A stretch of DNA of 32,124 nucleotides. It comes from a virus. The notes below the pieces were generated by a model, which saw only the letters and a program-made list of their open reading frames with translations, was not told where the DNA came from and searched no databases. The DNA is taken from the IMG/VR virus record IMGVR_UViG_3300030406_001976, positions 1 to 32,124 of that record. One strand, 5' to 3'. The position numbers and the translations under genes are program-made. Of this stretch, positions 24,538 to 31,889 are shown in pieces (position 1 is the stretch's first letter; every line of letters begins with the position of its first letter).

Positions 24538-24882
24538 TTAAAAAGGTAGGTCGTCTGGCAGCTCAGGTTGGTTCGCTTGTACGTTTACAGTTCTTTCTGA
24601 GGCTTCTTTGTGAGGCATAGGCTGTATTTTGCCAGAGTTGCCCCATAGACCTCCCCAAAGCGAAAACCCAGCAATTTCATCATAGTCTTTTCTACTTTTA
24701 TAAACACGAACTGTCGTGCCATCTATTTCAGCATTATCGACAGCTTGCAGAATCCATTGTGCAGCTTTTCTACCCTCTTCACAAGTGAAGTCAATAATTA
24801 CATTTTGGTCTGGTGCGTTTTCATTCTGGCTATTGTTGCCAACAATTCTTAGCTTTGCAAAAAAAGCAGGGGTGTTACTCAT
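24538..24882 (-). CDS. ssb: Single-stranded DNA-binding protein
   Basis: 114 residues from ATG at 24882. A longer upstream frame would start inside the HTH gene. An OB-fold like order is visible (AFFAKLRIVGNN, QNVIIDFTCEEGRKAAQWIL, GTTVRVYKSRKDYDEIAGF) and the C-terminus is the acidic PELPDDLPF tail, the typical docking tip of bacterial and phage SSBs. It coats ssDNA in replication and recombination. It lies with a Sak3-like annealing protein and an exonuclease, a usual phage set. The preceding HTH gene ends two bases before the start. Confidence 0.75.
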   Translation of the reverse strand: MSNTPAFFAKLRIVGNNSQNENAPDQNVIIDFTCEEGRKAAQWILQAVDNAEIDGTTVRVYKSRKDYDEIAGFSLWGGLWGNSGKIQPMPHKEASERTVNVQANQPELPDDLPF

Positions 24883-24884
24883 TA

Positions 24885-25103
24885 TTAAAAAGGTTTGATA
24901 GGGGTGATTTGGTTTGCCTCTTCCCATGCGAGGACTTTGTGTAGTTGGTATCTTATTTTAGGAGTACCAAAAGCTACAAAGGGTAATTCGTAATATTCAG
25001 GACCATAATTTCTATGCCTCCAGCTCTTGATTGTGCTAGGACTAAGGCCATATCTTTCTGCTAATTGGTCTGTTGTTAGAAATTGAGTTTCTGTGATGGT
25101 CAT
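24885..25103 (-). CDS. Small helix-turn-helix (MerR/excisionase-like) DNA-binding protein
   Basis: 72 residues. FLTTDQLAERYGLSPSTIKS followed by WRHRNYGPEYYELP is the HTH_17 pattern of excisionase- or MerR-like single domains, with a basic recognition helix and a wing region. It could regulate the early operon or act as a small recombination factor. No integrase is present in the window, so calling it excisionase would be unsafe. The start overlaps the Sak3-like stop in ATGA. Confidence 0.75.
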   Translation of the reverse strand: MTITETQFLTTDQLAERYGLSPSTIKSWRHRNYGPEYYELPFVAFGTPKIRYQLHKVLAWEEANQITPIKPF

Positions 25104-25762
25104 GGTGTTAATTCAGCTTTTTTAGTGTTTACTAAATCACATAAGACAATGTATTCGTCTTGACTGATTTTTCTTTGAGTATAACGCACCTCTAAGTTTG
25201 ATTCATGTTGCTTAAGTTGCTCAAGTGATGTTGTTTTTTCAATAGCTGTTTTAGCTGCAATAAAAACATTTTGATGAGGTTGCGCTGCTTTTGCCTTGTA
25301 TGGCTTTTCTTTCTGTGCTTTTTCTTGTTCTGTTGCTCTTGCAACTTCATTGAAAGCCCAAAGCTCATAACCCAGAGAAAAGGTAAAAGCTGCACAGGCA
25401 GCCAAAGCTCTACGGTGTGAATCTGAAACATCCCTTGCAGAAATCTTGTCAATTTTAATGGGATCGTTGCGATTGTTCATGATGGCATAAGGAAACAAAC
25501 CAGTTTCACCGCCTTGAGGGTCTGTGAAATAGCACATTAAATAGCCAGATCCGTCAGGTGCTTTCCATACCGAATCCAAAAAGGAAGGGCTTGTAGGCGA
25601 TTCTGAGTTGAGTTTTAAATGAAAATTCCAGCCTTTTGCATGAATATTCAAATAATATGCGATTCTTGACCATTTGCAGTATTGTCGGCCAGCTTTCTCA
25701 TAAACATCTTCTGTTGTGACTATGTTGTCCAGAATTGGTCTTTCCATTGTTGAAATTGTCAT
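25100..25762 (-). CDS. Single-strand annealing protein, Sak3/DUF1071-like
   Basis: 220 residues. GRQYCKWSRIAYYLN near the N-terminus, then GSGYLMCYFTDPQGGETG, and the key segment RNDPIKIDKISARDVSDSHR with RALAACAAFTFSLGYELWAF are typical for DUF1071 (Sak3-like) proteins. They anneal complementary ssDNA after exonuclease resection, as Redbeta, Erf and RecT do. The C-terminal part is a charged helix. It lies between the RecE-like exonuclease and SSB, 16 bases after the former, in one operon. Confidence 0.75.
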   Translation of the reverse strand: MTISTMERPILDNIVTTEDVYEKAGRQYCKWSRIAYYLNIHAKGWNFHLKLNSESPTSPSFLDSVWKAPDGSGYLMCYFTDPQGGETGLFPYAIMNNRNDPIKIDKISARDVSDSHRRALAACAAFTFSLGYELWAFNEVARATEQEKAQKEKPYKAKAAQPHQNVFIAAKTAIEKTTSLEQLKQHESNLEVRYTQRKISQDEYIVLCDLVNTKKAELTP

Positions 25763-25778: not shown

Positions 25779-26585
25779 TTAGAGCCATTTAGGGGATGCT
25801 AGTGTTTGTATTCCTTCAGGACAAGCATTTGTGTATCCTTGCCAGAATTTTGTTTTGGTTGCCTCAAGTATTTTTTGAAGCATTTCTTTTTGTAGTTCAT
25901 AACCTTTTTTGATGAAATTAGGAGATAGTTCATAAACTCCAACAGAGTAAGGGTGAACTTTTTCTACAACAATAAATATGAAGCGTTCTGCTCCAGTTGC
26001 TTGTAGGTAATGAGCAGCCTGCAGATGATAATTAAATGCAACTACTGTCCTTGTAAATTTGTCGGGGTTTGCTCCAGACTCACCAGTTGTTTTAAGGTCA
26101 ATAACCATATCACCTACTACATAATCGCAGCGAGCTTTGCATGGTAAACCTGTTTCACTATGAGTCCACCAGTAAGATTGTTCAGCCTTTCCAGATGTGT
26201 CATCTATGACATATTTTTTTGCAAATTCATTTTTGCTCAGGGCATTGTATATGCCCATAAATGTGTCCATTTCTGATGTTGTAAAAGTTTCTCTGCCACT
26301 TTGTGCAAGTTGCGAAGCTAACTTTTTACCTTCTTTAGATCGTTTATCGTCCAATAAGGCATATCTTTCTGGAAAGAGTTTAGGTTCTAAACAAAAGCAA
26401 TGAACCATAGAACCTATTCTCATGGCTGGAGTAGTTGTTTTAGGTGGATTGTCTTTACCAAATTTTTTTTGATATAAAGCTTCCAGCCCATTTGTGATGC
26501 CATACTTTAAATCACTGGCAGCCCAGTCTTTTGCTGCTCTATAGATGTTTTCTGGAACATCATGGCCTTGAATAAAATCAGTCAT
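25779..26585 (-). CDS. RecE-like PD-(D/E)XK exonuclease
   Basis: 268 residues. MRIGSMVHCFCLEP (His62) is followed by E135 in AEQSYWW, D154 in KARCDYV, the IDLKTT core with D163 and K165, and YHLQAAHYLQ (Gln189). This is the order of motifs in the RecE/YqaJ group of DNA exonucleases, which degrade the 5' strand and hand ssDNA to an annealing protein. That partner (Sak3-like) is the next gene. The start at 26585 overlaps the preceding stop by 8 bases. Confidence 0.85.
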   Translation of the reverse strand: MTDFIQGHDVPENIYRAAKDWAASDLKYGITNGLEALYQKKFGKDNPPKTTTPAMRIGSMVHCFCLEPKLFPERYALLDDKRSKEGKKLASQLAQSGRETFTTSEMDTFMGIYNALSKNEFAKKYVIDDTSGKAEQSYWWTHSETGLPCKARCDYVVGDMVIDLKTTGESGANPDKFTRTVVAFNYHLQAAHYLQATGAERFIFIVVEKVHPYSVGVYELSPNFIKKGYELQKEMLQKILEATKTKFWQGYTNACPEGIQTLASPKWL

Positions 26586-26787
26586 TTAAATACCTGTTTT
26601 TTTTTGATATAAAGCCTCCAATAGCACTGTCAGGGCCAAATTTTTCTATCAACTCAGGAAAATATTTTAAAATTTTTATTCTGTTAAAAACATCAGCAGC
26701 TATGCCAGCTTGAGCCAGTTTTTTTTCAAAATGGCTTCCATGATCTAAAGCTGTTAATAAAATTTTTAATTGAATTTCGTTGTTCAT
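26578..26787 (-). CDS. 69-aa hypothetical protein of the early operon
   Basis: 69 residues, helical, from ATG at 26787 (MNNEIQLKILLTALDHGSHF). The last residues are basic/Asn-rich (GGFISKKNRYLND). The frame is open to an ATG at 26913, but the extra part would include the 14-bp hairpin at 26844-26875 and overlap the previous gene, so the shorter form is preferred. No family recognised. It overlaps the exonuclease start by 8 bases. Confidence 0.6.
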   Translation of the reverse strand: MNNEIQLKILLTALDHGSHFEKKLAQAGIAADVFNRIKILKYFPELIEKFGPDSAIGGFISKKNRYLND

Positions 26788-26843
26788 TGTTAGAATGTGA
26801 GTGCCTCTTGGTGTTGGGGCATTAGGAAGAAAGAAAATATTGA

Positions 26844-26883
26844 TATCCCAGAGGTCAGGGGTGACTTCTGGGGTATTTTTTTT
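26844..26883. terminator. Strong hairpin plus T-run, terminator shape for rightward transcription
   Basis: TATCCCAGAGGTCA (26844-26857), loop GGGG, TGACTTCTGGGGTA (26862-26875): 14 pairs including two G-T. Eight T follow at 26876-26883 on the plus strand. For the leftward operon this is a hairpin just after the stop of the 133-aa gene with no T-run after it. As drawn it looks like a terminator for antisense transcripts, or a processing/stability element of the operon mRNA. Confidence 0.6.
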
Positions 26884-27283
26884 AATGCTTTTGTTTAATG
26901 CCAGATATCTCATTTAGTTGCCGTCCAATATTTTGAACTTTTTTCCAAGCTAGATAAGATTCTTGATCTATTTTTCTTTGTTCTAGAACTTTTCCTTCTT
27001 GTTCTAGCTTTATACTTTCTGCTATAAGTTCTTTATGACGTTTATCAGCTCTTATATACTGAATTTCTAAATCAGCAGTTTTATCATCAAGCGATAAATT
27101 ATAGTGAGCTAAATTTGCTGCTGTTTTTTCAATTGGTATATCAACAAGTAATTCAACTTGCTTTTGCCCTTTTGTTTCAAAGCACATTTGTCTGAAATTT
27201 GTAATAGGAAAAGGACAATCATTAAGCCAATTGTTTAAAGCTTCATTTGTGAAGTCAAGGCGGTTTAGGTGTTCTTGGTTCAT
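26882..27283 (-). CDS. 133-aa coiled-coil hypothetical protein
   Basis: 133 residues. The N-terminal part (LDFTNEALNNWLNDCPFPIT) has a small mixed domain. The second half (about 65-130) is a highly charged helix (KELIAESIKLEQEGKVLEQR and onwards), likely coiled coil. Its start shares ATGA with the end of the 45-aa gene, so it is co-translated. No family recognised. The early operon context suggests a role in replication or host take-over. Confidence 0.7.
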   Translation of the reverse strand: MNQEHLNRLDFTNEALNNWLNDCPFPITNFRQMCFETKGQKQVELLVDIPIEKTAANLAHYNLSLDDKTADLEIQYIRADKRHKELIAESIKLEQEGKVLEQRKIDQESYLAWKKVQNIGRQLNEISGIKQKH

Positions 27284-28254: not shown

Positions 28255-28295
28255 TTGAAATAATCTGAGAAAAGTAGGCTTTCGGCCATGCAATT

Positions 28296-28324
28296 AATAT
28301 AGTTTATCCGTTCTTATCTGTCAA
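28296..28324 (-). promoter_or_regulatory. Near-consensus sigma70 promoter of the leftward early operon
   Basis: On the minus strand TTGACA (28319-28324), a 17-base spacer and TATATT (28296-28301). The expected transcript start is near 28289. It would drive all genes from 28254 to 24360. It is the best promoter match in the window. Confidence 0.8.
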
Positions 28325-28383: not shown

Positions 28384-28413
28384 TTGCATTGTGGAAAACT
28401 ATGTTATTATATA
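28384..28413 (+). promoter_or_regulatory. Sigma70-type promoter of the 336-aa gene
   Basis: TTGCAT (28384-28389) and, after 17 bases, TTATAT (28407-28412), or after 18 bases TATATA (28408-28413). The transcript would start at about 28418-28422, at the palindrome. The intergenic region of 208 bases to the divergent gene holds only these regulatory signals. Confidence 0.65.
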
Positions 28414-28420
28414 TATATGA

Positions 28421-28436
28421 GGTCAAATGATTGACC
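28421..28436 (+). promoter_or_regulatory. Operator candidate GGTCAA-ATGA-TTGACC
   Basis: A 6-bp perfect palindrome with a 4-base centre placed right at the expected transcript start of the 336-aa gene, a classic place for repressor binding. The half site GGTCA/TGACC recurs in the hairpin at 27362-27390. Confidence 0.6.
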
Positions 28437-28462
28437 CATGATTCAAAACTTTTCTAAAACAA

Positions 28463-29473
28463 ATGACTTTTAAACTATCAACAAAACTTGTAAATCACTT
28501 AGAGCAAGAAATTTATGAAAAACTTACATCTGCTGTTGAGCTAAGAGCAGCAGAATGGAATGGCGACTGGGCAGCCAGAGAGCAAAGAGGTGAAAAATAC
28601 CACTTCTATATGGTCACTAAATGGGTCAGAGGTGAGAGAAAAGAAGTTGAGAAAAAGATCAACTGGCACAAGCACGTTGGTGGATTACTTAACATCGAGT
28701 TCTTCCAGACTGAACCAGAGCATGAGTGGGATACACCATACACTGATTACTACAGACCAAAGAGCTGCACAGTAAATTATGAAGCTTGCAAAGAAAATGC
28801 AAAAGCTCAAACAAGGCACAGTGTTGGCCTTTTAGAGAGCAGAATTAATGGCCACCTTGCAGTAACTGACAAGATTACTGACATCAATCTTGCACTTGGT
28901 AATGGTTATTTTATCGAAGGCTTTGTAATTGGTACTACTGACAAAGGTGAAGAGTTCAAAATTTACACTAAAATGATTTGGAACTACCGCTACGGAGCTA
29001 ATTCAGCTAATGGCTACCTCACACAATATGTACAGTTCAGAAGTGATAGAAGAGGAGCTAGACAAGAAGGCAAAACAGTTCTTCAAAGACTTACTGAAGA
29101 AGAAAAGCAAGCTAAGGCAGATGCTAAGCAAGCTGAGTTGGTTGCTAAGAATGAGGCTAAGTGGGCTAAATTTGCTGTTCTTCCAGACCAGATCGACAAA
29201 TGGGCTGACAAGCAAATCAAAAAGCATGAGAAGATGCTTACTGAAGCTGGTATAAAAAAAGCAGAAGATAAATTTTTTAGTCATTACTACAATGCAGGCT
29301 ATGAGTTTGACGTTGAGAATCACAAAAAATGGGTTACTGAGGATTTAGAAATATTTAAGATGTACAAAGAAAGGGTACAAAAGTTCCTCAATAATGAGCC
29401 AGCAGTCAGAGAGGTATTTGGTCTTGAGTGCAACACTAGAAATGATTTCTTACGCGTTGTCAGAAACAGCTAA
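28463..29473 (+). CDS. 336-aa unknown early protein, own promoter and terminator
   Basis: 336 residues, not recognised. The N-terminal part (about 1-70) is helical with many charged residues, then a mixed region with Tyr/Trp/His/Asn (YHFYMVTKWVRGERKEVEKK, YTDYYRPKSCTVNYEACKEN), and GNGYFIEGFVIGTTDKGEEF. From about 200 to 245 a Lys/Glu/Ala helix (LTEEEKQAKADAKQAELVAK) is likely coiled coil. The end is helical and basic. Codons are unlike the neighbours: more C-ending AAC, ATC, TTC, TAC, so it may be highly expressed or acquired. The unit has its own promoter, palindrome and terminator. Perhaps a host take-over or abundant DNA-binding protein. Confidence 0.75.
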   Translation: MTFKLSTKLVNHLEQEIYEKLTSAVELRAAEWNGDWAAREQRGEKYHFYMVTKWVRGERKEVEKKINWHKHVGGLLNIEFFQTEPEHEWDTPYTDYYRPKSCTVNYEACKENAKAQTRHSVGLLESRINGHLAVTDKITDINLALGNGYFIEGFVIGTTDKGEEFKIYTKMIWNYRYGANSANGYLTQYVQFRSDRRGARQEGKTVLQRLTEEEKQAKADAKQAELVAKNEAKWAKFAVLPDQIDKWADKQIKKHEKMLTEAGIKKAEDKFFSHYYNAGYEFDVENHKKWVTEDLEIFKMYKERVQKFLNNEPAVREVFGLECNTRNDFLRVVRNS

Positions 29474-29482
29474 ACTTTTATG

Positions 29483-29510
29483 CCCCACCTTAACTGGTGG
29501 GGTCTTTATT
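29483..29510 (+). terminator. Rho-independent terminator of the 336-aa gene
   Basis: CCCCACC (29483-29489), loop TTAACT, GGTGGGG (29496-29502), then TCTTTATT. It starts nine bases after the stop codon. The stem is perfect and the GC content is far above the surroundings. Confidence 0.85.
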
Positions 29511-30181: not shown

Positions 30182-30346
30182 ATGGACATTTCTGTGCGAC
30201 TTAGGGCTGAGGATTGTTTAAAACTTAAACAGTTTCTTAGTAAAAACCCATCTACTAAATCCCTTGGCCCTTTTCCAGAACATTTAGATTCAGGCACTAT
30301 AGCTAGAATCTGTTTTGGTTTAGAAAATGCACTTAACAAAATTTAG
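30182..30346 (+). CDS. 54-aa hypothetical protein
   Basis: ATG at 30182, TAG at 30344-30346. The product has MDISVRLRAEDCLKLKQFLS and a Leu/Phe-rich second half (FPEHLDSGTIARICFGLENA). It is 15 bases after the 123-aa gene in the same direction, and composition is protein-like. Its stop codon is part of the stem that closes the structured region at 30344-30481. No family recognised. Confidence 0.5.
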   Translation: MDISVRLRAEDCLKLKQFLSKNPSTKSLGPFPEHLDSGTIARICFGLENALNKI

Positions 30347-30481
30347 TCGGGCCACCTGATAGTAAGTTCTTAATGATGTTACTTACTTGAAAGCCATAAA
30401 ATACCTACGGTTATTCGTGGTTGATGAGCCATGTAGGAAAAGCAGGGCGGTGTTAGAAAAGGCCGAATCAACACCCGACTA
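30344..30481. ncRNA. Candidate structured RNA at a convergent junction
   Basis: 132 bases without a gene between two convergent stops, with GC of about 44%. TAGTCGGG (30344-30351) is the exact reverse complement of CCCGACTA (30474-30481), closing the region. Inside are AGTAAGT/ACTTACT, CCTAC/GTAGG (with a possible GGTT/AGCC extension) and GGTGTT/AACACC, which competes with the outer stem for two bases. A multi-helix junction results. The outer stem carries the stop codons of both flanking genes. No known RNA family recognised. A strand cannot be assigned. Contains TCGGGCCAC, shared with 24292-24300. Confidence 0.45.
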
Positions 30482-30679: not shown

Positions 30680-31118
30680 TAATAGTTTTTATTTTTATTG
30701 TTGCTCCTATTTTAGAATTTATATCGCAATATTTCTTCACTGCAAATACTTTTACGACTTGACTGTCGTCAGCAAATGCTGATCCAGTAAGCCCATCAAG
30801 TAACCCTCGTAACAGTTTATCAATATCACCTTTTAATCTGTTTGTAACATAAGTCGGAGCATCTTGCTTTAATATATTTTTTGAGTCATAGTGAAGCTTC
30901 GGACGTTTAAAGTAAAACGTAACTTCTATTGAAACTGGTTCTTCAATAATCCCGTCAACACAACACAACTTCGCCATAACACCGACCTGATCCCGCCATG
31001 AATTTAAGCGTTTACAGGTGTCAATCATCATTGGTTGCCCCTTCTTGTTTTTGCCAACAAATTTTTTACTGCCCTGCGGTGCAGCTTCAATATCTTTGAT
31101 CGTTATTATATATTCCAT
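30639..31118 (-). CDS. rusA: RusA-like Holliday junction resolvase
   Basis: 159 residues. APQGSKKFVGKNKKGQPMM and a beta strand (VSIEVTFYFKRP) precede the catalytic part KGDIDKLLRGLLDGLTG with Asp98 and Asp100, and FADDSQVVKV with Asp117/118. This is the RusA active site pattern. The lysine that follows the second Asp by four residues in E. coli RusA is Arg104 here, as in some other phage members. The dimer cleaves four-way junctions made by recombination or replication before packaging. It starts three bases from the divergent gene. Confidence 0.85.
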   Translation of the reverse strand: MEYIITIKDIEAAPQGSKKFVGKNKKGQPMMIDTCKRLNSWRDQVGVMAKLCCVDGIIEEPVSIEVTFYFKRPKLHYDSKNILKQDAPTYVTNRLKGDIDKLLRGLLDGLTGSAFADDSQVVKVFAVKKYCDINSKIGATIKIKTINEKENLICGLSRM

Positions 31119-31121
31119 AAA

Positions 31122-31889
31122 ATGAGTTTTATTCCAGAAAATACACCATTTATAGCACTTCCGTCATCCCTAAAAGGAAAAATAACACCTTATCAACTTA
31201 TGGTCCTTTGGGTCCTTCAAAGTTATTATCCAAATATTTGGCCTAGCTATGCCACAATTGCCAAGGATGCAAATATGTCTAGATCAACAGTTATTAGGAC
31301 TGTTAACGAATTAGTTAAATTAGAGCTTTTGCAAAAGCAATACAGGATAGATGAACATAATCAAAAGACTAATTGTTATAGAGTTAATATTTGGAGTCAG
31401 TGCAAAGCATTGCCTGTTCCAGACCCATCATTTCAAGGAGGGTATCTTACAGGAACTGGGGTAGTGTCAGAGAGAAACGGGGGTAGTATCACAGAGACAC
31501 TAAGGCAGTGTCAGAAAAATACTGGGGGGGTGTCAGAAATACACCCTAAGAAAAACAATATAACTAAAACAAATAACTATAAAAATAAAAGCTTTGAACC
31601 TTTTTGGAAAATATATTTAGAAATACCAAAAGACATGAGAACTATATCTCTGTCTAAAAAGCTTGCATATAACGAATTTATGAAATTAGATACAAAGACA
31701 AGGGATAAACTCAAGAGCTGCCTTGAAGCCGATATAAGGGCCAGAAGAAAGTCACTTAAGGCTGATAAGTTCACCCCTTTATTTCCTGATGCACATCGCT
31801 GGATAAGAAATGGACAATATGAACAATATTTATTGACAGCTACAAAAAAAGCACCTACATTTAGAAAACCCCAAAACACCCCTTTTTAA
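31122..31889 (+). CDS. Winged-helix replication initiation-type protein (HTH_36)
   Basis: 255 residues from ATG 31122. The frame is open further upstream, but that part lies in RusA on the other strand. SSLKGKITPYQLMVLWVLQS, then WPSYATIAKDANMSRSTVIR and TVNELVKLELLQKQYRID is the HTH_36 winged helix of phage and plasmid replication proteins. A linker with Gly/Thr/Ser follows (about 100-135), then a C-terminal helical part (FEPFWKIYLEIPKDMRTISL ... WIRNGQYEQYL), seen in replisome-organiser type proteins. Likely it binds the phage origin and loads the host helicase. Confidence 0.75.
   Translation: MSFIPENTPFIALPSSLKGKITPYQLMVLWVLQSYYPNIWPSYATIAKDANMSRSTVIRTVNELVKLELLQKQYRIDEHNQKTNCYRVNIWSQCKALPVPDPSFQGGYLTGTGVVSERNGGSITETLRQCQKNTGGVSEIHPKKNNITKTNNYKNKSFEPFWKIYLEIPKDMRTISLSKKLAYNEFMKLDTKTRDKLKSCLEADIRARRKSLKADKFTPLFPDAHRWIRNGQYEQYLLTATKKAPTFRKPQNTPF

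What the first reader, a model, noticed from the sequence alone, without database searches (positions are those of the whole stretch)
28384..29510. Insulated, codon-biased 336-aa unknown gene with operator
It has its own promoter, a palindrome at the transcript start and a strong terminator, and uses more C-ending codons (AAC, ATC, TTC, TAC, CAC) than the AT-rich neighbours. This means high expression under tight control or recent acquisition. The protein has no family I know. As the only insulated single-gene unit, it is the best candidate for a new early phage function such as host take-over or defence evasion.
Basis: partly seen in the sequence, partly recalled or inferred. Interest (0 to 1): 0.7.

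Follow-up and report, generated by a model that had tools for sequence, protein, structure and literature searches.

The report
Hairpin-capped early gene of Prochlorococcus phages
This is a conserved, probably very strongly expressed early gene of viruses that infect the ocean cyanobacterium Prochlorococcus; the suspected DNA 'operator' in front of it is better explained as a small RNA hairpin at the start of the message, kept by compensating mutations in many related viruses, while the job of the protein remains unknown.

Summary
In detail: ORF 28463-29473 (336 aa) has its own promoter-like sequence, a perfect inverted repeat at the inferred start of transcription (28421-28436), a strong terminator (29482-29503), and 49% C-ending codons in six C/T-choice families against 24% in the window. 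The reading changes. The protein is a member of PHROG 36669 (function unknown), is ~70% identical to proteins of Prochlorococcus siphophages MED4-117, MED4-184 and P-HS2, and occurs in 75 IMG/VR contigs. The codon bias recurs in all 20 phage loci checked, so it marks conserved strong expression (as in host psbA), not recent acquisition. The palindrome behaves as a 5'-terminal RNA hairpin: sequences differ among relatives, pairing is kept by compensatory changes, and G-U mismatches greatly exceed A-C ones. The divergent exonuclease/annealase transcript starts with a similar hairpin in most phages where its leader could be read. Best reading: an abundant early protein from an mRNA capped against RNase E at both ends. 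Antitermination (nut-like) is a live rival. No known fold was found. 'Host take-over' is plausible but unshown. In passing: a structured RNA at 30345-30480, not matched in Rfam 15, shared by these phages and picocyanobacterial genomes (19 of 201).

The parts
28384..28410 (+). promoter of the gene: TTGCAT ... extended -10 TGT-TATTAT
   Evidence: read by eye; conserved in relatives; not in the consensus scan list
28421..28436 (+). 5'-terminal RNA hairpin GGTCAA-ATGA-TTGACC, starting about 4-5 nt after the inferred transcript start
28447..28462 (+). linear leader element ACTTTTCTAAAACAA next to the start codon; ACTTTTCT also in the leftward leader
28463..29473 (+). 336-aa early protein, PHROG 36669, function unknown; slow-evolving core residues 165-205 (WNYRYGxNSANG loop), more variable and partly exchanged N- and C-terminal parts
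29482..29503 (+). intrinsic terminator-like hairpin
28296..28324 (-). divergent leftward early promoter TTGACA-17-TATATT
28275..28287 (-). short hairpin GGC-CGAAA-GCC at the start of the leftward leader, coordinates approximate (3 pairs only in this phage; 4-7 pairs in several relatives)
25779..26585 (-). exonuclease VIII-like gene of the divergent recombination operon (conserved context)
25100..25762 (-). PHROG 21418 (unknown function), weak match to Sak-like ssDNA annealing proteins (conserved context)

Best explanation
A conserved early expression unit of a lytic marine picocyanobacterial phage lineage. Shown in silico: the gene is the first rightward gene opposite a recombination operon; its leader, and the opposite leader in most phages where it could be read, begins with a short RNA hairpin just after the inferred start of transcription; a terminator-like hairpin usually ends the gene; C-ending codons are strongly preferred in every homolog checked. 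Inferred: host RNA polymerase transcribes the gene at once on entry; the 5' hairpin denies RNase E a free 5' end (as in E. coli ompA and papA mRNA) and the 3' hairpin blocks 3' exonucleases, so the message survives in a host whose RNase E rises during phage infection; psbA-like codons allow fast translation. The abundant product most likely binds nucleic acid or a host nucleic-acid enzyme through the invariant WNYRYGxNSANG loop, supporting take-over or the exonuclease/annealase recombination encoded next to it. The last step is the least certain.
For: Covariation: hand-collected hairpins 33 cells changed on both sides against 11 in shuffles; flank-anchored MAFFT alignment 12 against 2.9, and 96% paired against at most 52% when slid. 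20 of 27 non-redundant leaders have a better local hairpin than shuffles at p <= 0.1. 16 G-U against 2 A-C cells, which favours RNA over a DNA dyad. Codon bias in 20 of 20 phages, psbA-like. Conserved synteny with RecE/RecT-type genes in more than one phage lineage. Core pN/pS about 0.2 against 0.44-0.64 elsewhere. RNase E rises in MED4 infected by cyanophage P-SSP7 (PMC9692554); papers on 5' stem-loops stabilising mRNA are listed in PMC3997798.
Against: Transcript starts are inferred, not mapped. Hairpins are short (3-7 pairs); the leftward one in this phage has 3 pairs. Some homologs (L007, L052) show no clear hairpin. The in-clade flank-anchored alignment of the window's own group (A5) shows no covariation beyond shuffles; the covariation comes from the other group and from comparing groups. 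No structural match supports nucleic-acid binding: best PDB hit for residues 1-205 has E = 0.06, with low TM-scores. The RNase E evidence is from a different, T7-like phage.
Confidence: 0.5

Rival explanations
1. Processive antitermination: hairpins in both early leaders are nut- or put-like sites, bound by a phage protein (perhaps this one) or acting directly on RNA polymerase, letting polymerase read through the terminator after the gene, like lambda pL-nutL-N-tL1.
For: Hairpins in both divergent early leaders, often with the same loop within a phage (GAGA, GACA, GAGG), plus a shared linear element (TTCGCAA, TCTCGC or ACTTTTCT); a terminator directly after the first gene; own left/right leaders more alike than swapped over all phages, p = 0.005.
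Against: Within clades own left/right pairs are not more alike than swapped ones (p = 0.35 and 0.19). The linear element lies 3' of the hairpin, unlike boxA. L016 has the window's leaders but a different N-terminal protein type, and L009 and L024 share leaders but differ in protein, so this protein does not track the leader type.
Confidence: 0.18
2. DNA operator: the palindrome is a repressor site that controls the gene.
For: Perfect dyad in the window at the inferred start; a small excisionase/MerR-like HTH gene lies in the leftward operon.
Against: Dyad sequence is not conserved among relatives while pairing is; G-U far exceeds A-C mismatches; no second perfect copy in the window. Prophages have not been observed in Prochlorococcus (PMC7852597).
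Confidence: 0.12
3. Translational control: the hairpin and leader are a binding or standby site by which a phage protein (possibly this one) regulates its own translation.
For: Hairpin ends mostly 17-37 nt before the start codon; loops in one clade hold SD-like GGAGG or GGAAG, and the start-proximal leader has no clear Shine-Dalgarno sequence.
Against: Loop and stem vary among clades while the protein core is invariant; the same kind of hairpin precedes unrelated leftward genes.
Confidence: 0.15

Closest known systems
PHROG 36669 / hypothetical proteins of Prochlorococcus phages MED4-184 (CPAG_00024), P-HS2 (P-HS2_00025) and MED4-117 (CPWG_00034)
   Same: Full-length homologs, about 70% identity, same place at the divergent early hub
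   Different: In MED4-184 and P-HS2 the next gene overlaps the stop codon, so the unit is not a single insulated gene; hairpin sequence differs (AGCCT-GAAG-AGGCT)
5'-terminal mRNA-stabilising stem-loops (E. coli ompA, papA)
   Same: Hairpin a few nt from the inferred 5' end; structure kept while sequence varies
   Different: Shorter stems; effect on half-life not measured; on phage early transcripts in both directions
Lambda nutL/nutR (boxA + boxB) and HK022 put sites
   Same: Hairpins in both divergent early leaders, often with a purine-rich GNNA or GNRA-like loop, terminator after the first gene
   Different: Hairpin at the very 5' end, linear element 3' of it and unlike boxA, first-gene protein three times the size of N (comparison from general knowledge)
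Whirly, PC4 and PUR-type nucleic-acid-binding folds
   Same: Predicted helix plus four-stranded sheet occurs twice in residues 1-205
   Different: No Foldseek match to them among the best hits; halves show no sequence similarity

Membership tests
PHROG 36669 | profile match over the full length | tested here: met
   E = 7e-171, residues 1-336 of 336
5'-terminal mRNA-stabilising stem-loop | base-paired structure within a few nt of the transcript's 5' end, conserved as structure | tested here: met
   covariation and position; transcript start inferred only
5'-terminal mRNA-stabilising stem-loop | lengthens mRNA half-life, relieved by RNase E loss | not testable with these tools
   needs experiment
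Lambda-type nut antitermination | hairpin plus linear box in both early operons | tested here: inconclusive
   present but left/right matching not significant within clades; order differs from boxA-boxB
Lambda-type nut antitermination | leader type tracks the antiterminator protein type | tested here: not met
DNA repressor operator | dyad sequence conserved among relatives or repeated | tested here: not met
Known protein domain family (Pfam, NCBIfam, PADLOC, PDB by sequence) | significant match | tested here: not met
Whirly, PC4 or PUR nucleic-acid-binding fold | structural match | tested here: not met

The most novel reading that the evidence does not exclude
The hairpin-plus-box leaders of the two divergent early transcripts form a new phage-specific RNA recognition system (antitermination or coordinated mRNA control) in marine cyanophages, read by a phage protein of a new fold, possibly the 336-aa protein itself.
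Probability: 0.12. Interest if true: 0.75.

Novelty: new member of a known kind. Interest (0 to 1): 0.45.

Why it matters
Siphophages of Prochlorococcus are poorly understood, and P-HS2 is reported to carry no auxiliary metabolic genes (PMC7852597). A conserved early gene with psbA-like codon bias and an RNA-hairpin-capped message is a concrete candidate for how they seize the cell, and the 5' hairpins give a testable idea of how phage messages survive while host RNase E rises.

Tried and rejected
Recent acquisition: rejected, the bias is conserved in all homologs checked. Internal duplication of the helix-plus-four-strand unit: no sequence support. Jumbo-phage structural hits (Tenacibaculum phage pT24, Burkholderia phage BcepSauron): no convincing sequence match in either genome and none for one same-length BcepSauron protein, so not used. 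Bacterial homologs: none in genome contigs with two peptide patterns or in 386 cyanobacterial genomes (no positive control). Known RNA family for the leader: none. Strict left/right leader matching within clades: not significant.

Full report
Observation. The ORF at 28463-29473 is real and is preceded by a promoter-like sequence, a perfect 6-4-6 inverted repeat at 28421-28436 and followed by a strong terminator-like hairpin. It uses C-ending codons for Asn, Asp, His, Tyr, Phe and Ile in 49% of cases against 24% in the window, p = 2e-7.

Identity. The window is a virus record related to the Prochlorococcus siphophages MED4-117, MED4-184 and P-HS2. The protein belongs to PHROG 36669, unknown function; no Pfam, NCBIfam, PADLOC or PDB-sequence match was convincing. 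75 IMG/VR contigs encode relatives, down to about 25-30% identity. None was found among bacterial genomes, with limited searches.

Expression level. In 20 of 20 phage loci the gene has a higher C-ending fraction than the rest of the locus, and it is first or second among the genes counted. In the host, psbA has 0.77, a ribosomal protein cluster 0.19 and other genes 0.22; cyanophage P-SSP7 psbA has 0.49. The bias is therefore an old, conserved mark that resembles an abundant host message, not a sign of recent transfer.

Context. The gene is the first rightward gene at a divergent promoter region in nearly every locus with enough flank; in the main lineage it faces a leftward operon with an exonuclease VIII-like gene, a gene weakly matching Sak-like annealing proteins, and a protein with an SSB-like DDLPF tail. 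In a second lineage it heads a rightward run that holds RecE-like and RecT-like genes.

The palindrome. Upstream regions of the homologs show a hairpin just after the -10 region with different sequences: GGTCGA-GAGA-TCGACC, AGCCT-GAAG-AGGCT, GGCCG-GAGG-CGGCC, ACCCA-GACA-TGGGT and others. On 19 distinct hairpins collected by hand, 97% of cells pair and 33 cells changed on both sides against 11 in shuffles; as they were chosen because they pair, the fairer test is the flank-anchored alignment of one clade: 12 against 2.9, 96% paired. The window's own clade alone is too uniform to show covariation. A local-folding test on 27 non-redundant leaders gives p <= 0.1 in 20 (leaders are not fully independent). 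G-U cells outnumber A-C cells 16 to 2. This favours RNA over a DNA operator.

Both sides. The leftward transcript also begins with a hairpin in most phages where the leader could be read, often with the same loop as the rightward one and with a shared linear element. Across all phages own left/right leaders are more alike than swapped ones (p = 0.005), but within clades they are not, so specific co-evolution is not shown.

3' end. In the window's clade a conserved CCCCACC-TYAAC-TGGTGGGG terminator follows; in other clades a hairpin often spans the stop codon and is followed by T-rich sequence; in MED4-184, P-HS2 and L059 the T-run is missing and transcription probably continues.

Protein. AlphaFold2 gives good local confidence (pLDDT 87; residues 1-205 pLDDT 85, pTM 0.74): helix plus four strands twice, then helices. 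The invariant W173-G184 segment lies in a low-confidence loop. Foldseek finds no convincing solved structure; one unnamed viral protein matches well (D6PH25). pN/pS is about 0.2 in residues 165-205 and 0.44-0.64 elsewhere (synonymous sites near saturation). N- and C-terminal types are combined differently among phages, consistent with recombination.

Interpretation. The expression part (early, strong, RNA-hairpin-capped) is well supported in silico; the purpose of the hairpins and of the protein is inference. RNase E protection is favoured because the hairpins lie at the inferred 5' ends and RNase E rises in MED4 infected by another phage (PMC9692554); the stabilising effect of 5' stem-loops is taken from titles in PMC3997798's reference list (ompA, papA) and general knowledge. 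Antitermination and translational control remain open.

In passing. A 110-150 nt structured RNA lies at 30345-30480, directly after the stop codon of the 54-aa gene. It is found in most phages of the lineage and in a second phage lineage, and in 19 of 201 picocyanobacterial genomes, with at least 14 matches in one. Pairing is strongly supported: 155 cells changed on both sides against 49 in shuffles (alignment fitted to the model), 131 against 40 with host copies. Many host copies are followed by a terminator-like hairpin. Rfam 15 has no match at its thresholds; sRNA-Xcc1 (RF02221) scores below threshold on two host copies (24.4 and 18.5 bits against 53; E = 0.03 and 0.47) and shares the AUACAAnACC...GGGGAA core.

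Noticed in passing
window 30345-30480 (+); L003 13798-13915; host loci L269-L280: Conserved structured RNA of about 92-150 nt (AGTCGGGnAGCCTGA-[P2]-UGAAAGYC...CC-[P3]-GG..AAAGRCAGGG-[P4]-..CCCGACT) with strong covariation, no Rfam 15 match at threshold, in marine cyanophages of at least two lineages and in 19 of 201 picocyanobacterial genomes (up to 14 or more copies per genome). Distant, sub-threshold resemblance to the integron-borne sRNA-Xcc1 family. Probably of more interest than the finding itself.
   Followed up: partly
window 31118-31122: RusA-like gene (-) and replication initiator gene (+) start 3 bases apart, leaving no intergenic room for their promoters; each may depend on read-through or on promoters inside the other gene.
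   Followed up: no
window 24538-24927 (-): 129-aa protein (PHROG 37725, unknown function) ending in DDLPF, like the acidic tail of single-stranded DNA-binding proteins, inside the recombination operon; a candidate phage SSB.
   Followed up: no
L016 3948-5017 compared with window 28398-29473; L009 compared with L024: Mosaic exchange inside the 336-aa gene: near-identical leaders with different N-terminal protein types, and shared cores with swapped C-terminal types.
   Followed up: partly
host loci L083, L091, L092, L097, L102 and others; L161: In Prochlorococcus psbA uses 72-82% C-ending codons in the six families counted, while a ribosomal protein cluster uses 19%; codon indices built on ribosomal genes would mislead in this host.
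   Followed up: partly
window 26842-26877 (+ strand sense): Strong terminator-like hairpin with T8 on the + strand, antisense inside the leftward genes 26578-26913 and 26882-27283.
   Followed up: no
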